Positions 11,232 through 26,229 of a stretch of 64,000 nucleotides of DNA are shown here, one piece after another. Source of the DNA: Verrucomicrobium sp. BvORR106 (lineage in GTDB: Bacteria > Verrucomicrobiota > Verrucomicrobiia > Verrucomicrobiales > Verrucomicrobiaceae); the NCBI RefSeq assembly GCF_000739655.1, contig NZ_BATR01000102.1, forward strand, positions 1-64,000, written 5' to 3'. A model generated the notes under the pieces. The model had not been told where the DNA came from. It made no database searches and worked only from the letters and a program-made list of their open reading frames with translations. A program made the translations under genes and the position numbers. How positions within the stretch are numbered: position 1 is the first letter of the stretch; every line of letters starts with the position of its first letter.

Positions 11232-11307
11232 GGTGGGGTGGTTTTCCGTGGTTGCATCCATGCGCAGGGTGGCGAGAATCTTCGCTGCACGCATTCCTGA
11301 CTTTCTC

Positions 11308-12252
11308 ATGAAACCCCTGTCCCTGTTGTCCACCGTCCTTGTCGGCGCTTTGCTGGCATCATGCGCCCCGGAGCAAAAAGCTCCAGACAGCTCCCAGCCG
11401 GCTGAAACGACCCCGCCAACCAGCTCGCACGGTCGCTTGGTGGTGTATGTCGCGAACTATCCCCTGGCGTACTTCGCAGAGCGTATCGGAGGACCTGAGG
11501 TGGAGGTGAAGTTTCCTGCACCCGCAGACGTGGATCCGGCCTTTTGGGAGCCCACTGAGGCTGAGGTGGAGGCCTACCAGTCGGCCGATATCATCCTGCT
11601 CAATGGGGCGAGCTACTCGCACTGGCTGGATACGGTGACCCTCCCTGACTCGAAGACGGTGAACACATCCGCTTCCTTCTCAGACAAATTCATCGTGGTG
11701 AAGGATGCCATCACGCACAGTCACAGCGGTGAGGGCGAGCACTCGCACAGCGGCACGGTGTTCACCACGTGGATTGACTTTGACCAGGCTATTCAGCAGG
11801 CGGACGCGGTTCGCGAGGCCCTGCAGGCAGCACGGACCTCCCAGGTCGAGCTGTTCGCGCTCAACTTCGACCAGCTCAAGACGGACCTTCTGGCGCTGGA
11901 TGCAGACATGAAGAGCGAGGGCACACGGCTTGCCAAGCAGCCGCTCGTGGTGTCTCACCCCATTTACCAGTACTGGGCGCGGCGGTACGGGCTGAATGTC
12001 CAGTCGGTGCTATGGGAACCGGACACCGTCCCTGATGAAGCCCAGATCGAGGCGCTCAAGAAAATCCTCGCCACCCACCCGGCGAAGTGGATGGTGTGGG
12101 AAGGGGTTCCCGCGCCGGAATCGGTGGAGAAGCTCAAGGCTCTGGGAGTCAATAGCGTGGTCTTCGATCCATCAGCCAACGTGCCGGAGAAAGGCACCTG
12201 GCTGGATGTGATGAAGTCCAACATCCAGGAGATCAAGAAGATCATCCCTTGA
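11308..12252 (+). CDS. Metal ABC transporter substrate-binding lipoprotein (ZnuA-like)
   Basis: A 314-residue protein with a lipobox (LVGALLASC) that places it as a lipoprotein. The fold follows the cluster A-I metal binding proteins: YVANYPLAYFAERIGG, VEVKFPAPADVDPAFWEPT, then a His-rich loop (THSHSGEGEHSHSGT) typical of zinc/manganese binders, then VVSHPIYQYWARRYGL and FDPSANVPEKGTWLDVMKSN. ATG 11308 is chosen because the signal peptide starts there; GTG 11233 would give an implausible N-terminus. No permease or ATPase gene is adjacent, so it either serves a system elsewhere or acts alone in metal sequestration. Confidence 0.8.
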   Translation: MKPLSLLSTVLVGALLASCAPEQKAPDSSQPAETTPPTSSHGRLVVYVANYPLAYFAERIGGPEVEVKFPAPADVDPAFWEPTEAEVEAYQSADIILLNGASYSHWLDTVTLPDSKTVNTSASFSDKFIVVKDAITHSHSGEGEHSHSGTVFTTWIDFDQAIQQADAVREALQAARTSQVELFALNFDQLKTDLLALDADMKSEGTRLAKQPLVVSHPIYQYWARRYGLNVQSVLWEPDTVPDEAQIEALKKILATHPAKWMVWEGVPAPESVEKLKALGVNSVVFDPSANVPEKGTWLDVMKSNIQEIKKIIP

Positions 12253-12268
12253 TGAAGGTTATGTAATT

Positions 12269-12994
12269 TCATTGATCCTTGACGTTGGACTTCGGGCTCC
12301 ACCGATAGTGTCCAGTGAGCGGGTAGGTGAACAGGTCGTCCTCCAGCTGTGGTCCGCGGCCGATATTGTGCACCACCCAGGGGCGAGCTCCACCATCTGG
12401 GGCGGGCACGACCATCATGATGTGGGGGAGATGGGGCGGTACCGTGCAGGTGACGATGTCTCCTGGCCGGTAGTCTTCGTCTTTCTGAGTAACGGCGAGC
12501 TCCGCGCCCTGGCGTTTCAGAAAGGTCTGCAGATTGGGGACGCGGCGGTGATCGATGTTGCGGTCCGGTCGGCTCAGGCCCCAGTTTTTGGGGTACTTGC
12601 TGAAGTTCGCTTTCATGTCCTCGTGCACCAGTTTTTGAAGATCTAGGCCGAGGGCGCGACAGGCGCGAATGATCTCGTCCGTGCAGACGCCCGTGGCGGG
12701 ATCGACGTCGCCTCCCGGGTAGGACAGTTTTACGTAGGCGGGCTCATAGCGCACGTCGTGGCGGGTGCGGTCCAGGGCGGCGTGGGCGAGCTTGATGCCA
12801 AAGGAGCCGCCATTTGCTGGAAGTTGCGCCCGAGACTGAGGGGTGAGCCCCCGGTCCGTGAGGGCAGACTTGAGCTCTGAGGGGGCGGGGGCACCCTCTG
12901 GCGCAGGAGCTGCGACGGCGAGGCCACAGGAAAAAATCAGGCTGGCCAGGGCGGGGATCAGGGAGGGAGAGGGGAGAGTGAGGCGTGTTTTCAT
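12269..12994 (-). CDS. DUF1287-family secreted protein
   Basis: A 241-residue protein with a signal peptide (SLIPALASLIFSCGLAVAAPA). The conserved block YVKLSYPGGDVDPATGVC, TDEIIRACRALGLDL, LVHEDMK, KPDRNIDHRR-type motif (here RPDRNIDHRRVPNL), then DIVTC and HIMMVV and WVVHNIGRG define DUF1287. The conserved Cys and His residues suggest an NlpC/P60-like hydrolase; activity is not established here. It is convergent with the preceding gene (16 bp between stops) and divergent from the sulfatase, sharing only about 37 bp upstream. Confidence 0.85.
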   Translation of the reverse strand: MKTRLTLPSPSLIPALASLIFSCGLAVAAPAPEGAPAPSELKSALTDRGLTPQSRAQLPANGGSFGIKLAHAALDRTRHDVRYEPAYVKLSYPGGDVDPATGVCTDEIIRACRALGLDLQKLVHEDMKANFSKYPKNWGLSRPDRNIDHRRVPNLQTFLKRQGAELAVTQKDEDYRPGDIVTCTVPPHLPHIMMVVPAPDGGARPWVVHNIGRGPQLEDDLFTYPLTGHYRWSPKSNVKDQ

Positions 12995-13031
12995 TGTCGG
13001 GAGACGCGTTCTGGGTACACTGCGCCACTTC

Positions 13032-15104
13032 ATGCAAGGCAGGTTCTCCAGGCATTATTTTCTGCGCGGCGCGATGCTGGCGGTCGGTTTGACGCTGGGG
13101 CATGCCCTCGCGTTCAGCGCTCCCAAAGTGACCGTGAAACCGGCCATCGTGCCCAAGGCACAGGCCGCCCGCGCGGACTCGCCCAACGTGGTTTTCATCA
13201 TCGCCGACGACCTCAATGACTGGATTGGCTGGATGGGCGGCCACCCTCAGGCCCGGACGCCGAACATGGACCGCCTGGCCCGCATGGGCATGCGCTTCAT
13301 GAACGCGCACTGCAGCTATGCCCTGTGCAATCCCTCCCGCACCTCTATGCTCACCGGCATTCAGCCGTGGAACAGCGGGGTGGCGGGGAACGAGCAGGAC
13401 TGGCGCAATGCTGAGACGTTGGTGGGCAAGCCCACCCTCCCCGAGTACTTCCGCCAGCAAGGCTACACCACGGCAGCCGGGGGTAAGGTGTTTCACGCCA
13501 GCCACGGTGGCCCTGAAGGGCGGCTTACGGGCTGGCACGGCGGGCGTCGGGGCTTTGAGCAGGACGCCGCATGGGACACGCGCTTCCCTGGGAACGGGGT
13601 GCAGATCCCCGATCTGCCGGTGCACACGGGGCAGAACTTCAACGGGCTGGACATCTGGTATTGGGACTGGGGCACAGTGGACGTGAAGCCCGAGGCTACC
13701 GACGACGGCCAGGTGGTGAACTGGGCCACCCAATACCTCCAGCGCAAGCAACCCCGCCCCTTCTTCCTCACGGTCGGCCTGTATCGGCCGCATGCCCCTT
13801 GGTATGTGCCGCGCCAGTACTTTGCCGAGCGTCCGCTCTCAGAGGTGCGCCTTCCTGAGGTGAAGGAGGATGACCTGGCCGATGTGCCTGCCACGGCCAA
13901 GGCCTATCTCAATGGCGGCTTGCACCGTCAGATGATGGATCGCCAGCTCTGGGCCTCCGCAGTGCGCGCCTACCTGGCCAGCATTTCCTTCTGTGATGCC
14001 ATGGTGGGCCGCGTGCTGGATGCGCTGGAGAGCAGCCCCAACAAGGACAACACGGTGATCGTCTTCGCCAGTGATCACGGCCTGTATCTGGGCGAAAAAC
14101 AGCGCTGGCATAAGGGCGGCCTCTGGGAGCGTGGCACGCATGTGCCTCTGGTCGTGGTGGCCCCTGGTGTGACGCAGCCCGATTCGCAGAGCAGCCAGCC
14201 AGTCAGCCTCATCGATCTCTATCCCACTCTGTGCGAGCTGACAGGCCTGCCCAAGCCTCAACATCTGGACGGCATTTCTCTGGTGCCGCTGCTGCGCGAT
14301 CCCAACTCCACCCGCACCACCCCCGCGCTGACCGCCATGGGTGAGGGGGACAAGGCCAGCTACGCAGTCCGGACGGATCGCTGGCGCTACATCCGCTACT
14401 CCAACGGGAGCGAGGAACTCTACGATCACCAGTCAGACCCGCATGAGTGGACGAATCTCGCGGGCCGGACAAACCTGGCTGCGGTGCAGAAGGAACTGGC
14501 GGCGCAGATTCCTCAGAAGTGGACATCTTCGTCGCGCACGGTGGATCAGGTGAAGGTGGATTCTTCACCCGACGGGATGGTGAGCTACTTCTTCCAGGGG
14601 GGAGATCGCCTGAATGCTGACTCCTCACCGGACATCCTTGAGCGCGCCTTTGATATCGAGGTGGTCTTTGACTACAACCCTGCGATCAACGCGGACAGCA
14701 CGCTCATCAGCCAGGGAGACACTCGCTTGGGCTTCGCCCTGCACCTGGTGGATGGTCGCCCGGCGCTCACGGTGAACTATGATGGCCTGCGATCCACGCT
14801 GAAGTCTGAGGAGCAGCTTGCTCCCGGCCAGATCCGTGTGCGCAGCCTGGTCTCGCTGGATGGCTCCATGTCCCTGGCCGCCACAGGGCTGACCAAGGAA
14901 GTGCGCGGCTACGCTCCCTTTGAAGGCGGCTTTCCCCGCCTTCCCTCTGAGGGGCTCTCGGCCGGAGCCAGCTTTGGCCCATTGCCTGCGAAACTTTTCC
15001 CGAACAGCACCCCCTTTGACGGCCCCTTCCGTCTTCTGCGCATGACCATCCTCCCCGGCGTCACCGAAGATCGCCGCGCGGCCCGCGCCGTGCCAGTGGA
15101 GTGA
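13032..15104 (+). CDS. Secreted sulfatase (iduronate-2-sulfatase-like) with C-terminal lectin-like extension
   Basis: A 690-residue exported type I sulfatase. N-terminal hydrophobic segment GAMLAVGLTLGHALAFSAP; metal site NVVFIIADDLND; sulfatase signature C99-N-P-S-R, whose Cys is converted to formylglycine; later GKVFHASHGG, RPFFLTVGLYRPHAPW, IVFASDHGLYLGEKQRWHKG. This pattern is that of the iduronate-2-sulfatase group that acts on sulfated polysaccharides. Residues after about 520 form an extra domain (FDIEVVFDYNPA, LGFALHLVDGRPALTVNYDG) resembling LamG-like modules attached to sulfatases. ATG 13032 is chosen because it gives the signal sequence; the frame is open further upstream. Confidence 0.9.
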   Translation: MQGRFSRHYFLRGAMLAVGLTLGHALAFSAPKVTVKPAIVPKAQAARADSPNVVFIIADDLNDWIGWMGGHPQARTPNMDRLARMGMRFMNAHCSYALCNPSRTSMLTGIQPWNSGVAGNEQDWRNAETLVGKPTLPEYFRQQGYTTAAGGKVFHASHGGPEGRLTGWHGGRRGFEQDAAWDTRFPGNGVQIPDLPVHTGQNFNGLDIWYWDWGTVDVKPEATDDGQVVNWATQYLQRKQPRPFFLTVGLYRPHAPWYVPRQYFAERPLSEVRLPEVKEDDLADVPATAKAYLNGGLHRQMMDRQLWASAVRAYLASISFCDAMVGRVLDALESSPNKDNTVIVFASDHGLYLGEKQRWHKGGLWERGTHVPLVVVAPGVTQPDSQSSQPVSLIDLYPTLCELTGLPKPQHLDGISLVPLLRDPNSTRTTPALTAMGEGDKASYAVRTDRWRYIRYSNGSEELYDHQSDPHEWTNLAGRTNLAAVQKELAAQIPQKWTSSSRTVDQVKVDSSPDGMVSYFFQGGDRLNADSSPDILERAFDIEVVFDYNPAINADSTLISQGDTRLGFALHLVDGRPALTVNYDGLRSTLKSEEQLAPGQIRVRSLVSLDGSMSLAATGLTKEVRGYAPFEGGFPRLPSEGLSAGASFGPLPAKLFPNSTPFDGPFRLLRMTILPGVTEDRRAARAVPVE

Positions 15105-15518: not shown

Positions 15519-15611
15519 GCGCTGAAAGCCGCTGAACAGAATCTCTGGGGTCGCTTTCCCCAGAGGGGATTGGACTTGTCGGGAGGTGCGTGCATGCACT
15601 AAAACGAGAGC

Positions 15612-18098
15612 ATGCGTTTTGGTCTCGTCACGTGTCTCTTTGCCATCCTCGCGTCTGCGCCCCTTGCTGCGCAGGATCGGTCTCCGGAGAAGGCGAAGGA
15701 GGAGGCAAGGCAGGCGGATCTGAGCGACGTGGCTGACATCGCATGCTGGCAGGAGGATCTCGCAACCATTCAGAGGCTGATTGCAGAAGGGTGGGACGTC
15801 AACGGTGGAGGCTCAGAGTCAAGGTCCAAACCCTTTTACGTGGCAATCAAAAGCGGAGCCCACGACATCGTTGCTGCGATGGTCGCCGCCGGAGCCCGGT
15901 TGAATGAGCCGGATGCCAATGGCAATACAGCACTGTCGATGGCGGTCGGGAATTCTCACCGCAATCCCTCAGAAGAGTCGTCGTTGAGGATGCTCAACTA
16001 TTTGCTGGAGAATGGAGCTGATGTTCACGCTGGTGGAGAGGCGGCGGTGACCGCGGCAGCGGGAAATAACTTGAACCTGGTGAAACGTCTCGTGGCAGCT
16101 GGTGCCAGGCCCACTCCTGAATCCCTGGCTGCTGCCGTAAGCGACAACAAGGAGGATGTGGTGGACTACCTGCTTCAGCAAAAAGTGGATCCGAAGTCGA
16201 AGCTCAAGAACAACAAGACCCTCTTTCACTCTCTTCCTGAAAAGGCGCTCTTCGAAAGGCTTCTGGCTCTGGGTCTCGATCCTAACGCCGCTGACGACTC
16301 CGGGCGGCGGCCCGTTCACGTTGCCGCTTCGCGAGGAACCCGAAAACTCCCAGTGATGAAGCTGCTGGTGGAGCATGGTGCAGACATCAATGCGGCAGAC
16401 GGGGAGGGGATCACGCCCGTGATGCTCAGCCTTCCCAACAGGTGGATGAGGGAGACCGAGATGATGCACTATTTGGTGGAGCTTGGGGCACGATTGGATC
16501 TGCGCGACAAGCAGGGGCGCACCGTTCTGGACCATGCTTGGGCAAAAGGAAGATGGGAGGACGTCCTGTACTTCAAGCGCCATGGAGCAGGCTTTCCCGA
16601 TCCACGCGAGCGGTTGGACTTTTTCGTCCGGCGGGCTGCCAGTTCAGCGGTGGAATCGTCAACGTCGCGGGAGATCGTGGGGTGGCTGTCCACCAGCGTG
16701 GACCCGATTGCGGATTTCAAGCCTGACGGTCGACCTCTCACCGTCTGGTTTGTCATCATGGGCCATTCTGAACTGTTGGAGTTGTCCATCAAACAAGGTG
16801 TGTCCGTGGACGCCACCGATGGCGAAGGGCGCACGGCGCTCATGTGGGCGGAGATGACCGGCTCCGCTCAGGCCAAGGATCAGCTGTTGGCAAGAGGGGC
16901 CAGGCGGGACATCAAAGATGCCAGCGGGAAAACGGCGGGGGATTGGGCAGACTGGCGTGCGCATTTGGAGAAACATCCCCAATCTGCGGTGTCTGATGGG
17001 GCTCTCGTCTCACAGGTGCCGGACCTCCGCTCCGGTGAGGAGCAGGAGCGTGATGGTTTTTTTGCCGCCATCTATCGCAACCAACCGGAGGAGTTGCGAC
17101 GTCAGTTGTCAAGCAAGCCCGGATTGATGAAACTCGGGCAGGGCGGTCTACCTCCACTGAATCTGGCTGCTGCATTGGGTCGATTGGAGATCATGGATGA
17201 ACTGGTGCGCAGGGGGGCAATGCTGAACGGCAAATCGCCCGATGGAGAGACGCCGATGATCCTGGCGGTTCGGGGCGGACAGATGGCAGCAGTTTCGTGG
17301 TTGCTGAAGAAAGCACCGGGCGTTGTTTTTGGGGAAATGCTGCCTGAGGCTGGAGCGGAAGCGGTGAGCATGAAGCAAAGCGGGATTCTGCGCTTTCTTT
17401 TTGGGGAAGGGTGGCGTCCTGCGCAAGGCGATGCCAGTCTGTTGGCGCTACAAGTGGCTGTAGATCGCGATGATGCAGCCCTGTTTCGTCTGTTGTTGGA
17501 AGGAGGGGCGGAATTGCGCCCAACTCCATCGAAGAACCTCGGCGATGAAAATGAATTCGCGTCTCTCCTGCGAAGTGTCGGGAAGAGCACGGACACTGCG
17601 GTGTTGAAATCCTTTTTTCAGCACCTTGAGCAGCCGGTTCGGGATCAGTACCAGGCGCATCTTGCAGGGCTTTTTCAAAGCAGAGCCAGCAATGGCGATG
17701 TGGCAGGGGTGAAGTTGTGTCTGGAATTGGGAGGGGTGGATGTGAACGCTCGACTCCAGTCTGGTGCGTACACTCCAGGAACCTGGTTTGCGAAGGAAGA
17801 TAATCGGAACTTCACCACTGCCCTGGGTTTCGCGGCGGCTGCCGGACAGTTTGAAACGGTGCAGTATCTCCTGCAGCAGGGGGCCAAGTTGGAAGGTCTG
17901 GGACCGTACGACATTCCGTTGCTGCACGGTGCGGTCGATTCGAAAAATGAAAAACTCGTCGCCCTTCTGATCGAACGTGGCGTGCCCCTTCAGGAGAAGG
18001 ATCGTCAAGGCAGAACGGCGCTCCAACTTGCGGAGTTCAAGGAGCACCAGGCGATTGCGAACTTGCTGCGGAAAGCAACTGCCCGGCCATCCGACTAG
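15612..18098 (+). CDS. Secreted ankyrin-repeat protein (copy 1)
   Basis: An 828-residue protein with a signal peptide (MRFGLVTCLFAILASAPLAAQD), so it is exported. The rest is built of ankyrin repeats, for example VKRLVAAGARPTPESLAAAV, MKLLVEHGADINAADGEGIT, LLARGARRDIKDASGKTA and VQYLLQQGAKLEGLG, with a break near residue 460-480. No enzymatic domain is seen. The start is supported by conservation of CACTAAAACG-RGGCATGCG upstream of copy 2. Its stop is 6 bp from the stop of a convergent secreted-protein gene. The same pair recurs immediately downstream. The role is probably protein binding; the partner is unknown. Confidence 0.88.
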   Translation: MRFGLVTCLFAILASAPLAAQDRSPEKAKEEARQADLSDVADIACWQEDLATIQRLIAEGWDVNGGGSESRSKPFYVAIKSGAHDIVAAMVAAGARLNEPDANGNTALSMAVGNSHRNPSEESSLRMLNYLLENGADVHAGGEAAVTAAAGNNLNLVKRLVAAGARPTPESLAAAVSDNKEDVVDYLLQQKVDPKSKLKNNKTLFHSLPEKALFERLLALGLDPNAADDSGRRPVHVAASRGTRKLPVMKLLVEHGADINAADGEGITPVMLSLPNRWMRETEMMHYLVELGARLDLRDKQGRTVLDHAWAKGRWEDVLYFKRHGAGFPDPRERLDFFVRRAASSAVESSTSREIVGWLSTSVDPIADFKPDGRPLTVWFVIMGHSELLELSIKQGVSVDATDGEGRTALMWAEMTGSAQAKDQLLARGARRDIKDASGKTAGDWADWRAHLEKHPQSAVSDGALVSQVPDLRSGEEQERDGFFAAIYRNQPEELRRQLSSKPGLMKLGQGGLPPLNLAAALGRLEIMDELVRRGAMLNGKSPDGETPMILAVRGGQMAAVSWLLKKAPGVVFGEMLPEAGAEAVSMKQSGILRFLFGEGWRPAQGDASLLALQVAVDRDDAALFRLLLEGGAELRPTPSKNLGDENEFASLLRSVGKSTDTAVLKSFFQHLEQPVRDQYQAHLAGLFQSRASNGDVAGVKLCLELGGVDVNARLQSGAYTPGTWFAKEDNRNFTTALGFAAAAGQFETVQYLLQQGAKLEGLGPYDIPLLHGAVDSKNEKLVALLIERGVPLQEKDRQGRTALQLAEFKEHQAIANLLRKATARPSD

Positions 18099-18104
18099 GG
18101 GGCA

Positions 18105-18992
18105 TCACTGCCCAGTCGCTTTGACGAAAGCGGTGCAGATTTTTGCCTCTCCCGGATAACTGCCGTCCTTAGAGGCGTGCCAGGCTGCGCACAACCATCC
18201 CCCGGTTGTTTTCAGTTCCACGGAGGTGTTCCAATTGCTCATCTCGGGGGATACCGTGTGTTTGAGTTCCTTGCTGGTAGGATTGAAGCTGCTGATTACC
18301 GTCTGCCACGCTTTGAGCGGATCCTTGCGATCTTCGCTGGATTCTGCTTCACGCACCCATGCCACCCACCACTTTCCTCCCGCCCATACAGGTGAGGATG
18401 CCGGTACGAAGCTCTCGATGGTCGCTGGCTCTCCAAGACGCACACTGCTGCCACTGCGGCCACTTTCGACATCTACATGGGAGAGGTGAAGTTGCTGAAT
18501 GCGGTAATCAGGAAATCCCGGGAGGTTCGACCAGTTCGTCCATATAAACCCAACCGTAGATCCGGTGAAATTTGTCCTTTCAACATGGGGATCTTGCTGA
18601 GGATCCAAGGGGAGGGGAAGCTCGACACTCGGCCCATTTGGATCGCTGCGCGTGAGGACAAAACGGGAGACCGTCCCTGCGGGCGAGATGCTGATTACCC
18701 TGTCCTCCTGGTCTCTGCGGTCGGGATTCGATAAATAGACCTCATCTGGCCACTTCTCCAGCCGGTGTCTGGGAACGAGAATTTTGCCATCTGGGGAGTA
18801 GATGATGCGTGAATAGACAGGCTCATCCCGAGCCCCTTGATTTGGCTGCCGTGTGCGGAAGGTCATGATGAATTTTTCATCTGCGACATCAATCATCGGG
18901 GCGGTGTCCCCCGCAGGATCGGAGTGAGCACAAACTTGCCCGTGCATCAATACACACCATCCCAGCGCTAGGAGAGTCCTTGGCAGTGCCAT
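18105..18992 (-). CDS. Unrecognised secreted protein paired with ankyrin protein (copy 1)
   Basis: A 295-residue protein starting MALPRTLLALGWCVLMHG, a signal peptide cleaved near VCAHS. No family is recognised. Trp-rich strands recur (GFIWTNWSNL, VWAGGKWWVAWVREAE, GGWLCAAWHASKDG) as does IIYSPDGKILVPRHR, which suggests a beta-propeller or beta-sandwich with bacterial-neuraminidase-like repeats; this is only by eye. A paralogue lies at 21686-22576 with the same motifs in order. ATG 18992 is chosen because both paralogues share MALP(R/K). It is convergent with the ankyrin gene. Confidence 0.75.
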   Translation of the reverse strand: MALPRTLLALGWCVLMHGQVCAHSDPAGDTAPMIDVADEKFIMTFRTRQPNQGARDEPVYSRIIYSPDGKILVPRHRLEKWPDEVYLSNPDRRDQEDRVISISPAGTVSRFVLTRSDPNGPSVELPLPLDPQQDPHVERTNFTGSTVGFIWTNWSNLPGFPDYRIQQLHLSHVDVESGRSGSSVRLGEPATIESFVPASSPVWAGGKWWVAWVREAESSEDRKDPLKAWQTVISSFNPTSKELKHTVSPEMSNWNTSVELKTTGGWLCAAWHASKDGSYPGEAKICTAFVKATGQ

Positions 18993-19168
18993 CGCGCCAA
19001 AATAGCGGTCCATAGGGTGGCAGGGCAAGTCTTCTCGCCATTTGTTATTTTGTCTGCCTCCGTTTCACCGAGCCTCGGAGCCCTCTTTCGCGCTCGGGCG
19101 ACAACGGGACTGCTCTGTCAGGTGCAATAGGGCTTGTCGAGCGGTGGAGCTTTCCACTAAAACGGGGC

Positions 19169-21682
19169 ATGCGATGGTCCTGTTTGCTCGGTGCTTTCCT
19201 GCTGCTTGGTCCCGCCTGGGCGCAAAGCGGTCCGGCGGCTGCGGCGATTGACGTGGAGCATGAGCAGGTCCAGATGAGGGCCTTGTATGCCGCCTGTGAC
19301 GGCGGCGATCTGGCCAAGGTGCAAGCACTGGTCAAGCAGGGCATCAACGTGAATGGCTACTCCGAGGAGTATCGAGGCAAGCCGTTCTTCGCGGCACTGG
19401 CGCGGGGGTACTCCGATGTGGTGCGCCTGCTGATACTCGCCGGGGCGCGAGTAAATGAAGCGGATCCCGATGGCAAGACGCCCTTGTATCAGGCCACCCG
19501 GCGGGGAGCCAGTCCAGAGTCGGCAGAGCGCATGGTGGAAATCTTGTTGGCGAATGGTGCCGATGTGAGCGCCGCAGGCGGCATGGCCTTGGAGGGCGCG
19601 GCCAGTCAGTCAGTGAACTTGGTGAAACAACTCCTGGCTGCAGGGGCAAAACCGACCATGGGTGCTCTGGCCGTTTCCGTTTCGGAAACGGAGATGGAAG
19701 TGTTCGAGTATTTGATCAAGGAAGGGGGGCTGGATCCGAATGCGCGCGTTGCGTCCCATGGGGGGACATTGTTTCATGAAGCCACCAGGGTTCCCATGGC
19801 TGCACGTCTCCTCAATCTCGGTCTGGATGTCAATGCGCAACGTGACGACGGCCGTACGCCGTTGCTCCTAGCCTCTGAGAAGGGCGATATCGAACTGGCC
19901 GTCTGGCTCCTGGAACAAAAGGCGAATGTTAATCTGGCGGACAAGGAGGGGAGAACGCCTTTGATGGCATCGGTCGGAAGCGGCTCCTACGATGAGCCTC
20001 TGCTGCCCATTTTGTTGAAGGCTGGAGGAGATCCCCAGATCCAAGACCTCAAAGGCAGGACTGTCCTCGACTATGCCTGGGAAGAGGGGGCCTGGGGTAA
20101 TGTCGTGACTTTGCTGGATGCTAAGGCGGAGTTCAAAAACATTGGGGAGACCCTTTGCGCCTTGTTTGCCAGAGCACAATCGTCTGCAGTCTCAGAAGAT
20201 GCCGTGGAGCAGATCGTCGACCGATTGCTGCCTCGGACAGGGACGTTGAACGATCTTCGGGTGGAAGGGCGACCGCTGCTGGCTTGCTCAGTGTTGCTTG
20301 GTCAGCCTCGACTGACGGAGCGATTGCTCAATGCAGGGGCGAAGGTGAATGCGCCGGACTCAACTGGGCGTACCGCGCTGATTTGGTCCGCCATGTGCGG
20401 TAACTCATCAGCCAAGCAACTCCTTGTGAAAGCGGGGGCCAACTCGCATATCAAGGATGCTTCCGGACGGGATGCTGCGGCCTGGGAACGAGAGATGCGG
20501 CAGAGTGCCAAGGGGGAGTCTGGTGGTCGTGACGACGGGAGTTCCTTGAACCCGATTGAGCGTGGGACAACGACTGGGCAGGTGCCAAAGGCGACGCATG
20601 AGGTGTTCTTCAAGTCTGTGATGATCAACGATGCGGCAACCGTGCGGCGTCTGCTCACCGCAGACAAGAATCTGCTAACGGATGAGCAGGGTGGCTTGAG
20701 ACCACTGCATCTGGCCGCCGCGCTGGGGCACATCGAGACGGCGGAAGTCCTCCTGCGCGGTGGGACATTCTTGAATGAAAAGACGTCGGTCGGAGAAACA
20801 CCTTTGGAGCTCGCCGTCCGCGGGGGACGCAGTGAGATGGTGACCTGGCTGCTGGACAAAGCGCCGCCCGTGCTGGCGGTGGACATGCTCCCTGCGGCTG
20901 GCAGAGCTGCCTTGGACTCCTACCAATCGGGTATCTTGACTAAAATGATGCTAAGAGGCTGGACTCCTGAACGATCCCTAGGGGGGCTCAGGCTCGCGCT
21001 CTTCAACGAGGACGTGGAACTCCTCCGTGAATTGCTGGCTGCAGGGAAGGACGCGAAGTCCGAAAAACCTACGGAGCAATGGGGCACGCTTCCGCTGTTG
21101 GATGTGATTGAAAGCCTCGGTTACGTCAAGAACCCGGAGTTGGCCCGGATGCTGATTCGTCATTGGGGGCTGCCTTTGCCTGCTCCAGCGGATATGGCGT
21201 TGGTTGCGGCGATGCAGCAATCCGCGTTGCTTGGGAACACGGCTGTGATGGCCACCTTTATCAAAGAGGCGAACCTCGACATCAACCATGCCCTGCAGAA
21301 AGCCACTGAGCCATCTTGGACACCAACGCCTGAAGAAGGGCAGCCTCGTCCGAAGCTTCGGACCGCATTGAGCCTGGCGGTGGCTGAAGGCAGGCTGGAA
21401 ACAGTGAAATGGCTCTTGGATCGAGGCGCCCAGACCGAGGGCGTGGACGACCGTGGGTGGCCTCCGCTCTGTAGTGCAGCTGCGTCTGGGAACGTGGAGA
21501 TGGTCAAGTTGCTGATCGCAAAAGGAGCATCCCTGCAGACAAAGGATGGCAAGGGCAGCTCAGCCCTCGATCTGGCGGTCGAATTCGGTCACGATGATGT
21601 GGTGGCACTGCTTCGAAGCCAAGAGCTGGGAGAAAAGTCCCTGCCCGTCAAAACGCCCCTCCAGAACGCACCAAAAAACTGA
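19169..21682 (+). CDS. Secreted ankyrin-repeat protein (copy 2)
   Basis: An 837-residue paralogue of the ankyrin protein at 15612. Signal peptide MRWSCLLGAFLLLGPAWAQS. Ankyrin units include VKQLLAAGAKPTMGALAVSV, WLLEQKANVNLADKEGRTPL, LLNAGAKVNAPDSTGRTALI, AEVLLRGGTFLNEKTSVGET and VKLLIAKGASLQTKDGKG. The order of repeats and the central break match copy 1 throughout, so this is a whole-gene duplication. The start is supported by shared upstream sequence. Its stop is 3 bp from the stop of the convergent partner. Confidence 0.88.
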   Translation: MRWSCLLGAFLLLGPAWAQSGPAAAAIDVEHEQVQMRALYAACDGGDLAKVQALVKQGINVNGYSEEYRGKPFFAALARGYSDVVRLLILAGARVNEADPDGKTPLYQATRRGASPESAERMVEILLANGADVSAAGGMALEGAASQSVNLVKQLLAAGAKPTMGALAVSVSETEMEVFEYLIKEGGLDPNARVASHGGTLFHEATRVPMAARLLNLGLDVNAQRDDGRTPLLLASEKGDIELAVWLLEQKANVNLADKEGRTPLMASVGSGSYDEPLLPILLKAGGDPQIQDLKGRTVLDYAWEEGAWGNVVTLLDAKAEFKNIGETLCALFARAQSSAVSEDAVEQIVDRLLPRTGTLNDLRVEGRPLLACSVLLGQPRLTERLLNAGAKVNAPDSTGRTALIWSAMCGNSSAKQLLVKAGANSHIKDASGRDAAAWEREMRQSAKGESGGRDDGSSLNPIERGTTTGQVPKATHEVFFKSVMINDAATVRRLLTADKNLLTDEQGGLRPLHLAAALGHIETAEVLLRGGTFLNEKTSVGETPLELAVRGGRSEMVTWLLDKAPPVLAVDMLPAAGRAALDSYQSGILTKMMLRGWTPERSLGGLRLALFNEDVELLRELLAAGKDAKSEKPTEQWGTLPLLDVIESLGYVKNPELARMLIRHWGLPLPAPADMALVAAMQQSALLGNTAVMATFIKEANLDINHALQKATEPSWTPTPEEGQPRPKLRTALSLAVAEGRLETVKWLLDRGAQTEGVDDRGWPPLCSAAASGNVEMVKLLIAKGASLQTKDGKGSSALDLAVEFGHDDVVALLRSQELGEKSLPVKTPLQNAPKN

Positions 21683-21685
21683 CCA

Positions 21686-22576
21686 TCAGGGGGAGGGGAC
21701 GGCTTTGAATGCGGTGATGATTCTCCCAACGCCCGGGTAGTCGCCATCTTGAGATGCGTGCCACGCTGCGCAGAGCCATCCCTTGGTCGTTTTGAGATCC
21801 AGATGGGCGTTCCAATGACTCTGTCCCGGAAGTCTCTCCTCGGTTAGCTTTCCTGAATTGGGATCGTAGCTGCTCAGAACGGTTTGCCACGCCGTCGTGG
21901 GATTTTGCAGTTCGGCGAGGGTGTTGGCAGCCTTTACCCAGACTACCCACCAGCGTCCACCGGCCCAGACAGGTGGCGAGGCTCGCGGAAAGCTGTAGAC
22001 GAGCGCGGGTTCACCGAGCCGGATTCGACTCCCCGGTTGAGCGCCATCCCGGGCTACATGGGTCAAGTAGAGTGAGGTGGGGGTATCTCCATCGGTTCGG
22101 TCTCCGGTGGAGTCAGTCCAGGTGAACCCGACCCATTTGTCGGTGAAAGTGCAGGCGCTGATCTCGGCATGCTTTTCGGGAGAAACTGGCAGCGGCGTTT
22201 CATGGAGAGGGGTGCCTTCAATTCGAATGCTGGTAAGGACGAAGCGTTGTCCTTCGGCTGTAGGTTTCGTCTCGACGACAAGCCCTGCGACGTTGCTACG
22301 GTGTTCGGCCCACGGGCGTTCGGGTACCTCTTGAGCACGATGTCTGGGAACGACGACCTTTCCGTCGGGCGAATAGATGATCCGGAAAAAGGGATTCTTT
22401 TGGGAGCGAAGTTGCCCGACAGGGGTTTCTTCGATGGCGCGAAATGCCACTGCGAATTTCCCATCGATCACCTCGATGCTGGGGTGGGTCTCCCCGCTGG
22501 GATCTTGATGCCCTTGCGCAATTCCCACGGCCAGCCCAAGCCACGCCAGTTGAAGGACCATTTTGGGGAGTGCCAT
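21686..22576 (-). CDS. Unrecognised secreted protein paired with ankyrin protein (copy 2)
   Basis: A 296-residue paralogue of the protein at 18105. Signal peptide MALPKMVLQLAWLGLAVGIAQG. Shared motifs: FRIIYSPDGKVVVPRHRA, WVGFTWTDSTGD, VWAGGRWWVVWVKAAN, TAWQTVLSSYDPNSGKL and KGWLCAAWHASQDGDYPG. The 90 bp upstream of the two paralogues are also conserved (GGCAAGTCTTCTCGCCAT and ATTTTGTC), so promoter and gene were duplicated together. The function is unknown. Confidence 0.75.
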   Translation of the reverse strand: MALPKMVLQLAWLGLAVGIAQGHQDPSGETHPSIEVIDGKFAVAFRAIEETPVGQLRSQKNPFFRIIYSPDGKVVVPRHRAQEVPERPWAEHRSNVAGLVVETKPTAEGQRFVLTSIRIEGTPLHETPLPVSPEKHAEISACTFTDKWVGFTWTDSTGDRTDGDTPTSLYLTHVARDGAQPGSRIRLGEPALVYSFPRASPPVWAGGRWWVVWVKAANTLAELQNPTTAWQTVLSSYDPNSGKLTEERLPGQSHWNAHLDLKTTKGWLCAAWHASQDGDYPGVGRIITAFKAVPSP

Positions 22577-22725
22577 CGCGCTAAAATACCCAGACCATTG
22601 GCCGAGAGGCAAGTCTTCTCGCCATCGGTCATTTTGTCGCACCCCCGTTTCACCGTTTCCGCCTTGCGCGGACGGGTTTGACCGCTAGTGTGGGCGGGAC
22701 AGTCCGACAGATTGACCTGCCAAGC

Positions 22726-23584: not shown

Positions 23585-24709
23585 TCAGCGGCTCCGGTTC
23601 GTGTAGGCCCCGCAGGATTCTCTCACCACCAAGTGGGGAGAGAGCAGCACCATCCGCGGTGGCAGAGTGGGAGAGGTCATGCGCTCCAGCAGCGTGTTGA
23701 ACGCCATGTGCGCGATGTCCCGGCAGGGCTGGTGCATGGTGGTGAGAGGGACGGAGAGCAGGGAGGCCACCTGCACGTCATCAAAGCCCACCACCCGGAT
23801 GTCCTGCGGCACATTGATCTTCAGGTGGGAGAGGGATTGCAGCAGGCGGGCGGCGACGAAGTCCGTCGTGCACATGAGCGCGTCCACCCGTCGTCCTGCC
23901 ACCACCTGCCGGACGAACTTCACATCTCCCGGGTCCCCGGTCTGCACAAAGTCCCGGGGCACTTCCAGACCGTGCGTCATCATGGCGGCCCGGGCTCCCG
24001 CTATGCGCGCATCCGCTGGTGGGGCGGAGAAGGGCATGACCACGTAGCCGAGGTGCTTGGCCCCCAGCTTGATGAGATGCTCCGCGAGGATGTAGCCGCC
24101 GGCAAAATTGTCGAGCCCCACCAGGTCCATTGGGCTGCGCTCGGGAAATGCACCAATATCCCGGTCCACCAGCACGACGGGGATGCCTGCCCCGCGAAGA
24201 CGCTCGATGATGCGGTGATTCGCCGCCTGATTGTACGGGCGGTGCTCGAAGGGGACGAAAAACACGCCCGCCACGCCTTTTTCAATAAACTGCTCACAGA
24301 GGGTCTCCACCTCCTCCACCCGGGTGTCCATTTCCGTCTTGGGGCGGCTGGTGCCTCCCCACCACATGCCGTAGTCGTGCACGCGCGCCAGACCGGATAA
24401 TTCCCCGAAAATACTCTCGAATATTTCGGGTTTTCCGTGGCTGGTGAGGATAAATCCGAGCTGGCGGAAGGAAGTCCGCGTGCCAGCCGCGCCCGGGGGG
24501 CTGACAGATTCCCTGACATACGTCCCGGAACCGGCCCGTCGGTAGATGATGCCCTGGTCCTGCAGGTCGCGCAGCGCCCTGCCCACCGTGGGACGTGAGA
24601 CATTGAACCGCTTAACCAGTTGAGCCTCACTGGGCAGCCGCTCGTTTCCGGCGTGCTTGCCGGCGGCGATTTCGGTCGCGAGTTGGCGGGAGATCTCCTG
24701 ATGTTTCAT
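23585..24709 (-). CDS. GntR-type regulator with LacI-like ligand domain
   Basis: A 374-residue regulator. The N-terminal GntR winged helix is clear: EISRQLATEIAAGKHAGNER, LPSEAQLVKRFNVSRPTVGR, then GIIYRRAGSGTYV. From about residue 85 it has a periplasmic-binding-like sensor of the LacI/GalR type (GVFFVPFEHRP, IPVVLVDRDIG, VGLDNFAGGYILAEHLIKLG, IRVVGFDDVQVASLLSVPLT). This is the AraR-like architecture used for sugar-responsive repression. It is divergent from the polyol/sugar uptake operon at 24904 and is its likely regulator. ATG 24709 is preferred over 24736 since the winged helix starts there. Confidence 0.9.
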   Translation of the reverse strand: MKHQEISRQLATEIAAGKHAGNERLPSEAQLVKRFNVSRPTVGRALRDLQDQGIIYRRAGSGTYVRESVSPPGAAGTRTSFRQLGFILTSHGKPEIFESIFGELSGLARVHDYGMWWGGTSRPKTEMDTRVEEVETLCEQFIEKGVAGVFFVPFEHRPYNQAANHRIIERLRGAGIPVVLVDRDIGAFPERSPMDLVGLDNFAGGYILAEHLIKLGAKHLGYVVMPFSAPPADARIAGARAAMMTHGLEVPRDFVQTGDPGDVKFVRQVVAGRRVDALMCTTDFVAARLLQSLSHLKINVPQDIRVVGFDDVQVASLLSVPLTTMHQPCRDIAHMAFNTLLERMTSPTLPPRMVLLSPHLVVRESCGAYTNRSR

Positions 24710-24903
24710 GCGTGTCACATGGGTGAATCCTGTCACTATCAGGTTTTGAATCAGTCAGGTCAAGTTTCTAAAAGATGACATGACAAGGTGTTCACAGAAT
24801 TGGGGTGGATTTTCTTAATATCTCTTCAGCCGCCGGACACGGGCCCACCGGTGCGCTGAAACCCATTCAATAGAAAATCCAAACTTCCTACCACGACTTC
24901 CTC

Positions 24904-26229
24904 ATGCACTTGAGCCCCATCAAAAAATGTCTCATCGCCGCGGTTATTTCCGGAACCTCCTTCGCATCTTCATCCGCCTCTGAGGGCGGCTACTGGCAGG
25001 GCGAGCACGCGCTCGGGAACTTCCTCGGCATCCGTGATTCCCTTGAAGCCGCAGGGGTCACTTTCTTCGGCAGCTATGAAGCCAACATCGGCGGGAACCC
25101 GGTGGGGGGACGCGAGCGGGGCGTGGCCTACTCGGACAACTTCGATTTCGGCCTGCGGTTTGATCTGGAAAAGCTCGTCGGCTGGGATGGAGCCACCTTC
25201 ACGGTTCAAGGAGTGCAACGTGACGGCACCAGCCTGACCAACGACTATGTGGGCAACTTCTACCAGGTGCAGCAGAACTTCGGAGTGCAGACCACCATGC
25301 TCTACGGGGTGTACTTTGAGCAGAAGTTTCTGGATGACCGCGCCTCGCTGAAGTTCGGCCGGTTTGCCACCAACGACGACTTTGCCACTTCACCCATCTA
25401 CGGTCTCTACATGGGTAATGCCATCGACGGCAATCCCAAGTCACTGGTATCCAGCGGGGCGTTTACTTCGTATCCAGGATCTTCATGGGCGGCACGTTTC
25501 AAATACGAGACGTCTGCCGAAACCAATGTGTCCCTCGGCGTGTATCAGAACACAGACACGGTCTATGATGAAGGCAAGCATGGCCTCGACTGGAGCATGC
25601 GCGGCAATGATGGCGTGATGTTCATCGGTCAGGTGGGTTGGACGCCGGAGTTCTTCCGCAAGCCGGTGGCTTCGGGAACCACCGTGGATGGCAAGTCTGC
25701 GAAGGCAGTGCAGCCGACGACGGAGATGAAAGGTCTGCCTGGTCACTACTGGCTGGGGATGTATTACTCCACCTGGGAAACCCGGGCTTTTGACAGCGAT
25801 GAGCTGCAGGATGGCAAGTATGGTTTCTATGTGCACGCCGATCAGATGGTGTACCAGGAATCCCCAGGCAGTGATCAGGGACTGACTCTGTGGACCGCGG
25901 CGGTCTATCAACCTGATGAGCGGGTCAATATCATCCCTTTCCAGATCAACGGTGGCCTGGTGTACAAGGGGCTCATCCCCGGGCGTGAAGCGGACTCCAC
26001 CATTCTCGGCCTTTCCTACGGCAGCTTCAGCAAGGACTACGCCCGCGAGGAACGGAAGGCGGGGCGCGGCAATCCTGACTACGAGTTCGTGGTGGAGGCC
26101 GGCCATCGCATCCAGCTCACCAAGTTCGCCTACGTGATGCCGGAGCTGCAGTGGATCATCAACCCTGCGGGCACTGGTCAGGTGGATGACGCCCTCGTGG
26201 TGGGCCTGCGGATTGGCATCACCTTCTGA
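24904..26229 (+). CDS. Carbohydrate-selective porin, OprB family
   Basis: A 441-residue outer-membrane protein with a signal peptide (KKCLIAAVISGTSFASSSAS). OprB features are LGNFLGIRDSLEAAGVTFFG near the N-terminus, LKFGRFATNDDFATSPIYG, and a C-terminal strand ALVVGLRIGITF ending in Phe. OprB porins admit monosaccharides and polyols. It is the first gene of a run of five on the plus strand (porin, ATPase, permease, binding protein, dehydrogenase), behind a divergent regulator with 194 bp between the starts. A role in outer-membrane entry of the same substrate is inferred. Confidence 0.88.
   Translation: MHLSPIKKCLIAAVISGTSFASSSASEGGYWQGEHALGNFLGIRDSLEAAGVTFFGSYEANIGGNPVGGRERGVAYSDNFDFGLRFDLEKLVGWDGATFTVQGVQRDGTSLTNDYVGNFYQVQQNFGVQTTMLYGVYFEQKFLDDRASLKFGRFATNDDFATSPIYGLYMGNAIDGNPKSLVSSGAFTSYPGSSWAARFKYETSAETNVSLGVYQNTDTVYDEGKHGLDWSMRGNDGVMFIGQVGWTPEFFRKPVASGTTVDGKSAKAVQPTTEMKGLPGHYWLGMYYSTWETRAFDSDELQDGKYGFYVHADQMVYQESPGSDQGLTLWTAAVYQPDERVNIIPFQINGGLVYKGLIPGREADSTILGLSYGSFSKDYAREERKAGRGNPDYEFVVEAGHRIQLTKFAYVMPELQWIINPAGTGQVDDALVVGLRIGITF

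What the first reader, a model, noticed from the sequence alone, without database searches (positions are those of the whole stretch)
15572..22680. Tandemly duplicated convergent pair: secreted ankyrin protein and unknown secreted protein
Two units of about 3.5 kb each hold a secreted ankyrin gene of about 830 codons and, facing it with 3-6 bp between stops, a gene for an unrecognised secreted protein with Trp-rich motifs. Upstream sequences of both genes are conserved between units, so the whole pair with promoters was copied. Both products are exported, so they probably bind each other or a common target. Tail-to-tail genes this close should also influence each other through overlapping transcripts. 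I know of no described system of this kind.
Basis: partly seen in the sequence, partly recalled or inferred. Interest (0 to 1): 0.6.

Follow-up and report, generated by a model that had tools for sequence, protein, structure and literature searches.

The report
Paired exported ankyrin and beta-sheet proteins
Two bacterial genes that face each other tail to tail, one for an exported ankyrin-repeat protein and one for an unnamed exported beta-sheet protein, stay together in distant relatives at different chromosomal places, so they probably work as one unit whose job is still unknown.

Summary
Two 3.5-kb units (ank1 15612-18098 +, partner1 18105-18992 -, gap 6 bp; ank2 19169-21682 +, partner2 21686-22576 -, gap 3 bp) are an old tandem duplication (37% and 43% amino-acid identity), with all four genes under purifying selection (dN/dS 0.23-0.29). 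The genome has no other copy. Verrucomicrobium spinosum (inferred identity) has an empty site there; diverged native flank recurs between the units, so the doubling happened in situ. The same tail-to-tail pair occurs in other genera and a second family of the order, at six different chromosomal sites, usually 3-14 bp between stops. The link is asymmetric: all six full-length ankyrin orthologues in the family face the partner, but the partner also occurs alone in five genomes and survives intact where the ankyrin gene is broken. I read the ankyrin as an accessory (holder or maturation factor) of the partner in the periplasm, working like AnkB-KatB, rather than as an antitoxin. The partner has no Pfam or NCBIfam family; it is all-beta, probably a beta-propeller (low-confidence model), with an invariant histidine at the predicted mature N-terminus. 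Direct binding is inferred, not shown.

The parts
15612..18098 (+). ank1: exported ankyrin-repeat protein, 828 aa
   Evidence: ORF; Ank_2/Ank_4/Ank far above Pfam cut-offs; dN/dS 0.29 against the sister species
18105..18992 (-). partner1: exported all-beta protein, 295 aa, tail to tail with ank1 (6 bp)
   Evidence: ORF; homologous to partner2; no Pfam/NCBIfam match
19169..21682 (+). ank2: exported ankyrin-repeat protein, 837 aa; model shows two ankyrin solenoids (26-444, 471-822) with a disordered linker
   Evidence: ORF; Pfam; AlphaFold2 mean pLDDT 78
21686..22576 (-). partner2: exported all-beta protein, 296 aa, tail to tail with ank2 (3 bp)
   Evidence: ORF; low-confidence all-beta model, pLDDT 46.5, matching mostly beta-propellers
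15576..15605 (+). promoter-like TTGTCG-18 nt-TAAAAC, 6 bp before the ank1 ATG
   Evidence: read by eye; shared with ank2 (repeat D5); not found by the sigma-70 consensus scan
19134..19163 (+). promoter-like TTGTCG-18 nt-TAAAAC, 5 bp before the ank2 ATG
   Evidence: as for ank1
18999..19054 (-). upstream element of partner1: TTGCCC-18 nt-TATTTT, with GGCGAGAAGACTTGCC overlapping the first hexamer
   Evidence: 90% identical over 31 nt to the partner2 copy (D6); the 16-mer occurs exactly only twice in the genome
22583..22638 (-). upstream element of partner2: TTGCCT-18 nt-TATTTT, with the same 16-mer
   Evidence: the outer part is native flank shared with V. spinosum
15520..22619 (.). extent of the two-unit block absent from V. 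spinosum (about 246 bp there)
   Evidence: blastn of the window against L094 and sequence of the empty site

Best explanation
A two-gene module of Verrucomicrobiales, doubled in tandem here. Gene 1 makes an exported ankyrin solenoid; gene 2 makes an exported all-beta, probably beta-propeller, protein that is the working part. Most likely the N-terminal ankyrin solenoid cups the partner in the periplasm and holds, matures or regulates it, while the partner binds or acts on something at the cell surface or in the periplasm. Shown: the genes, their homology, conserved tail-to-tail pairing, duplication in situ, purifying selection, and the asymmetry of co-occurrence. Inferred: export (from signal-like N-termini), location in the periplasm, direct binding, the accessory role, the propeller fold. 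Not known: what the partner binds or converts.
For: Pairing: both genes face each other in G000 (twice), G065 (twice), G047 (13 bp), G023 (14 bp), G097 (7 bp), G073 (136 bp) and G037. In G037 the broken ankyrin gene still ends 4 bp from the partner stop. Neighbouring genes differ in Verrucomicrobium, G047, G023, G037, G073 and G097, so the pair kept together through relocation or transfer. Ankyrin and partner trees agree on the well-supported splits they share; pairwise identities correlate (Spearman 0.66), though shared ancestry alone gives such a correlation. Asymmetry: in 68 family genomes all six full-length or half-length ankyrin orthologues (E<=1e-25) have the partner, but the partner stands alone in G021, G070, G266, G197 and G167. 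G047 keeps only the N-terminal half of the ankyrin, ending where the model of ank2 puts the linker between two solenoids, and keeps the partner. All four genes have dN/dS 0.23-0.29. Precedent: AnkB, a periplasmic ankyrin protein needed for optimal catalase KatB activity (cited in PMC7567364).
Against: No binding data. Tail-to-tail order is unlike the operons usual for subunit pairs. The partner works, or at least persists, without the ankyrin. The propeller reading rests on a model of mean pLDDT 46.5 built from three sequences, and no internal sequence repeat was found. Convergent neighbours could have been carried along together without acting together.
Confidence: 0.5

Rival explanations
1. 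Toxin and immunity: the partner is an exported toxin or effector and the ankyrin protein neutralises it in the periplasm, as the ankyrin-repeat protein Tli neutralises the lipase Tle.
For: Secreted ankyrin proteins do serve as immunity proteins (PMC11470151, PMC10294624). Patchy distribution and relocation of the pair. Unit 1 was recently exchanged between sister species.
Against: The partner is kept where the ankyrin is missing (G021, G070, G266, G197, G167) or broken (G037), the opposite of what a self-toxic protein allows. Both have plain export signals; no toxin family matched.
Confidence: 0.1
2. Both proteins are independent parts of one surface function (for example binding the same polysaccharide or surface) and do not touch each other.
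For: Both look exported. Propeller matches include sialidases, GH43 enzymes and sugar-binding lectins, and many Verrucomicrobiales live on polysaccharides (general knowledge).
Against: No carbohydrate-active gene is regularly beside the pair. Ankyrin solenoids normally bind proteins.
Confidence: 0.17
3. The genes are coupled mainly through their transcripts: tail-to-tail transcription makes each gene damp the other (excludon-like), the products being functionally separate.
For: Gap of 14 bp or less kept in 8 of 9 pairs. Overlapping transcription between neighbours is a described regulatory mode (PMC7154746). A weak terminator-like hairpin for ank1 lies inside partner1 (18115-18134), so transcripts could overlap.
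Against: 136 bp in G073. Short convergent gaps are common in bacteria (general knowledge); no transcript data. The terminator scan finds only somewhat more sites than shuffles.
Confidence: 0.08
4. Passenger pair: two unrelated exported genes that happened to become neighbours and move together by recombination, with no joint function.
For: Patchy distribution (6 of 68 family genomes; 16 of 387 order genomes). A recombination tract spans unit 1. The partner also exists alone.
Against: The pairing holds across two families and six different sites. All four genes are under purifying selection. Every close ankyrin orthologue in the family has the partner.
Confidence: 0.15

Closest known systems
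AnkB-KatB of Pseudomonas aeruginosa and ankyrin-KatA/KatE pairs of Campylobacter and Leptospira
   Same: Ankyrin protein (periplasmic in AnkB) encoded beside the protein it serves (cited in PMC7567364)
   Different: The partner here is not a catalase and matches no Pfam family; the genes face each other instead of forming an operon; the ankyrin is 460-1120 aa, much longer than AnkB (size of AnkB from general knowledge)
Tli-Tle (Tle6) lipase-immunity pair of Enterobacter cloacae
   Same: Exported ankyrin solenoid encoded with its client; the solenoid cups the client like a hand (PMC11470151)
   Different: Tle is a type VI effector and a lipase; here the partner has its own export signal and persists without the ankyrin
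Five-bladed propeller glycoside hydrolases (GH43, GH117) and other propellers (sialidase, YncE, BamB, PLL/AAL lectins)
   Same: Foldseek and VIA-align rank these propellers first for the partner model
   Different: Model of low confidence; no sequence similarity detected; catalytic residues not assignable
Excludon-type convergent gene pairs
   Same: Tail-to-tail genes with almost no intergenic DNA (PMC7154746)
   Different: No transcript evidence; here the products share export signals and co-occurrence

Membership tests
Ankyrin-repeat proteins (Pfam Ank clan) | Tandem ankyrin repeats above Pfam cut-offs | tested here: met
   Ank_2 E 7.8e-58 and 4.2e-84 for ank1 and ank2; helical solenoid model, pLDDT 78
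Periplasmic ankyrin accessory proteins (AnkB-KatB type) | Export signal on the ankyrin protein | tested here: inconclusive
   Signal-like N-termini in all orthologues read by eye; no signal predictor available
Periplasmic ankyrin accessory proteins (AnkB-KatB type) | Gene adjacent to a catalase | tested here: not met
   The adjacent partner has no catalase or any other Pfam match
Periplasmic ankyrin accessory proteins (AnkB-KatB type) | Needed for the activity of the neighbour's product | not testable with these tools
   Needs deletion and biochemistry
Tle6-Tli effector-immunity pairs | Partner is a phospholipase effector | tested here: not met
   No lipase or effector family match for the partner; all-beta model of low confidence
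Tle6-Tli effector-immunity pairs | Effector gene always accompanied by the ankyrin immunity gene | tested here: not met
   Partner alone in G021, G070, G266, G197, G167; ankyrin broken beside an intact partner in G037
Beta-propeller proteins | Circular array of four-stranded blades | tested here: inconclusive
   All-beta model at pLDDT 46.5; matches mostly propellers, best Z 8.6 and poor TM-scores; no internal repeats by hhalign
GH43 glycoside hydrolases | Sequence match to the family and its acidic catalytic residues | tested here: inconclusive
   No Pfam match in any of 14 members that names GH43; only weak fold matches
Histidine-brace copper proteins (LPMO, CopC) | Mature N-terminal histidine | tested here: inconclusive
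   All 14 aligned members have A/G-His at the apparent cleavage site; cleavage itself not shown
Histidine-brace copper proteins (LPMO, CopC) | A second invariant histidine ligand | tested here: not met
   His23 is the only invariant His in 14 sequences
Excludon-type regulation | Overlapping antisense transcripts that lower each other | not testable with these tools
   No transcript data; short gaps only

The most novel reading that the evidence does not exclude
The partner is a new exported enzyme family on a beta-propeller scaffold whose mature N-terminal histidine forms an active or metal site, and the ankyrin protein is its dedicated maturation factor, loading a cofactor in the periplasm as ankyrin proteins are thought to do for catalases.
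Probability: 0.08. Interest if true: 0.7.

Novelty: new variant of a known kind. Interest (0 to 1): 0.42.

Why it matters
It gives an uncharacterised exported protein family, restricted in our samples to one bacterial order, a first functional handle: a dedicated ankyrin companion. The natural experiments (companion halved in one genome, broken in another, absent in others, and the pair doubled here) make a clear test of what exported ankyrin proteins do for their neighbours, a question answered so far, to my knowledge, only for a few catalases and one lipase group.

Tried and rejected
Toxin-immunity as main reading: rejected because the partner survives without the ankyrin. Genome-wide regulon for the 16-nt upstream element: rejected; only the two exact copies exist and two-mismatch hits are at control level; part of the surrounding conservation is native flank, and the element could also be read in frame as an N-terminal extension of partner2, so its role is open. 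Plasmid copies of the partner: none. Phylum-wide sample gave no partner outside the order. Solved-structure sequence search gave only chance matches. PADLOC and NCBIfam hits of the ankyrins are generic repeat matches, far below NCBIfam cut-offs. Internal-repeat test of the partner found nothing. The order-wide ankyrin search scored only two candidates per genome and missed G073 and G097, so it cannot give a rate of ankyrins without partner outside the family.

Full report
Observation. The ankyrins (P0001, P0002) are 37% identical nearly end to end and the partners (P0003, P0004) 43%. Stops are 6 and 3 bp apart. Pfam sees many ankyrin repeats in both ankyrins and nothing in the partners; NCBIfam gives the ankyrins only generic repeat matches far below its cut-offs. 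Neither product has another copy in the 8.69-Mb genome.

Origin of the block. The closest relatives held are G065, which corresponds to the record NZ_BATQ01000134 of Verrucomicrobium sp. BvORR034, and G067, a single 8.22-Mb contig that I take to be V. spinosum (inference from size and genus). G067 has the same neighbours (sulfatase and PTPS/queD on the left, a small lipoprotein-like gene on the right) but only about 246 bp between them: an empty site. The sequence right of unit 2, shared with G067 from about 22620 on, recurs in diverged form right of unit 1. So the pair sat at this site as one unit and was then doubled in situ together with about 50 bp of native flank. Whether G067 lost it or never had it cannot be told.

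Selection and exchange. Between G000 and G065 dN/dS is 0.29, 0.27, 0.23 and 0.26 for ank1, ank2, partner1 and partner2: all four are maintained. dS is 0.04-0.07 for unit 1 but 0.16-0.38 for unit 2 and 0.34 for queD. Sliding identity shows about 97.5% from 15.6 to 19.75 kb against about 88% around it, which is best read as recent exchange of unit 1 between the sister species.

Pairing elsewhere. In 68 genomes of the family the partner occurs in six. In the order it is found in 16 of 387 sampled genomes, sporadically, with no hit outside the order in a phylum sample (that sample held few genomes of this order that carry it). Reading the neighbourhoods, the ankyrin faces the partner tail to tail in G000 (twice), G065 (twice, one copy split by a contig end), G047 (13 bp), G023 (14 bp), G097 (7 bp) and G073 (136 bp). 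In G037 the ankyrin reading frame is interrupted, but its 3' end still lies 4 bp from the partner stop. The neighbours differ at each of the six sites: queD; a transporter-like gene and nadA; a large repetitive protein and a cytochrome-type gene; an oxidoreductase and a kinase; DUF1501 and cytochrome oxidase genes; a formyltransferase and an ATPase (names are my reading of the sequences). A pair held together through so many places behaves as a unit.

Asymmetry. Every close ankyrin orthologue in the family (six, E<=1e-25, one of them half-length) faces a partner. The partner, however, stands without an ankyrin in G021, G070, G266, G197 and G167, and next to a broken one in G037; G139, G186, G216 and G005 are cut or damaged and were not counted. 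So the ankyrin depends on the partner and not the other way round. This speaks for the ankyrin as an accessory, and against the partner as a poison held in check by it.

Anatomy of the proteins. The ank2 model (three sequences, pLDDT 78) has two ankyrin solenoids, 26-444 and 471-822, with a disordered linker. G047's ankyrin is about 461 aa and corresponds to the first solenoid only, so this half is enough for the pairing to persist. The partner model is poor (pLDDT 46.5) but all-beta, and both structure searches return mostly beta-propellers: GH43 enzymes, sialidases, WD40 proteins, YncE, BamB and lectins. No internal sequence repeats were found. In all 14 aligned partners the apparent signal cleavage leaves a histidine as first residue, followed by a conserved x-[DN]-P-x-G-[DE] motif with one exception at the proline; His23, Gly28, Pro32, Ser200 and Asn256 are invariant. 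No second histidine is invariant, which argues against a classical histidine brace.

Control regions. Both ankyrins have TTGTCG-18-TAAAAC and both partners TTGCC(C/T)-18-TATTTT, each ending 5-6 bp before the ATG (by eye). The consensus scanner finds no sigma-70 site, so these are only suggestive; if right, the mRNAs would be nearly leaderless. The 16-mer GGCGAGAAGACTTGCC before both partners is found exactly nowhere else in the genome.

Mechanism. I think the partner is the working protein and the ankyrin its periplasmic holder or maturation factor, bound through the N-terminal solenoid. Precedents for exported ankyrins serving a neighbour are AnkB for catalase KatB (PMC7567364) and Tli for the lipase Tle, where the solenoid cups its client (PMC11470151). 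It works like these; it is not a member, since the partner is neither catalase nor lipase by any match found. I put direct binding with an accessory role at 0.5.

Novelty. I found no paper on such a pair (the library is incomplete). The kind, an exported ankyrin next to its client, is known; the client family and the convergent layout are new to me, hence a new variant.

Noticed in passing
15600-19750: Tract about 97.5% identical to the sister species G065 while flanks are about 88%: recent recombination covering unit 1 and the start of ank2.
   Followed up: partly
L021:10488-11786: Ankyrin gene of G037 is interrupted; its remnant 3' end still abuts the intact partner gene.
   Followed up: yes
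L048:4640-7804 and L045:45-4252: Lone partner homologues lie near uvrB in two different families, and near uvrC in L050; meaning unknown.
   Followed up: no
L019:5949-7379: G047 carries a halved ankyrin companion that ends near the linker between the two solenoids of ank2.
   Followed up: partly
11233-15101 and 23588-26226: ZnuA-like zinc-binding protein, a DUF1287 gene and a sulfatase lie left of the block; a GntR/LacI-type hybrid regulator and an OprB porin lie right of it. Ordinary neighbours.
   Followed up: partly
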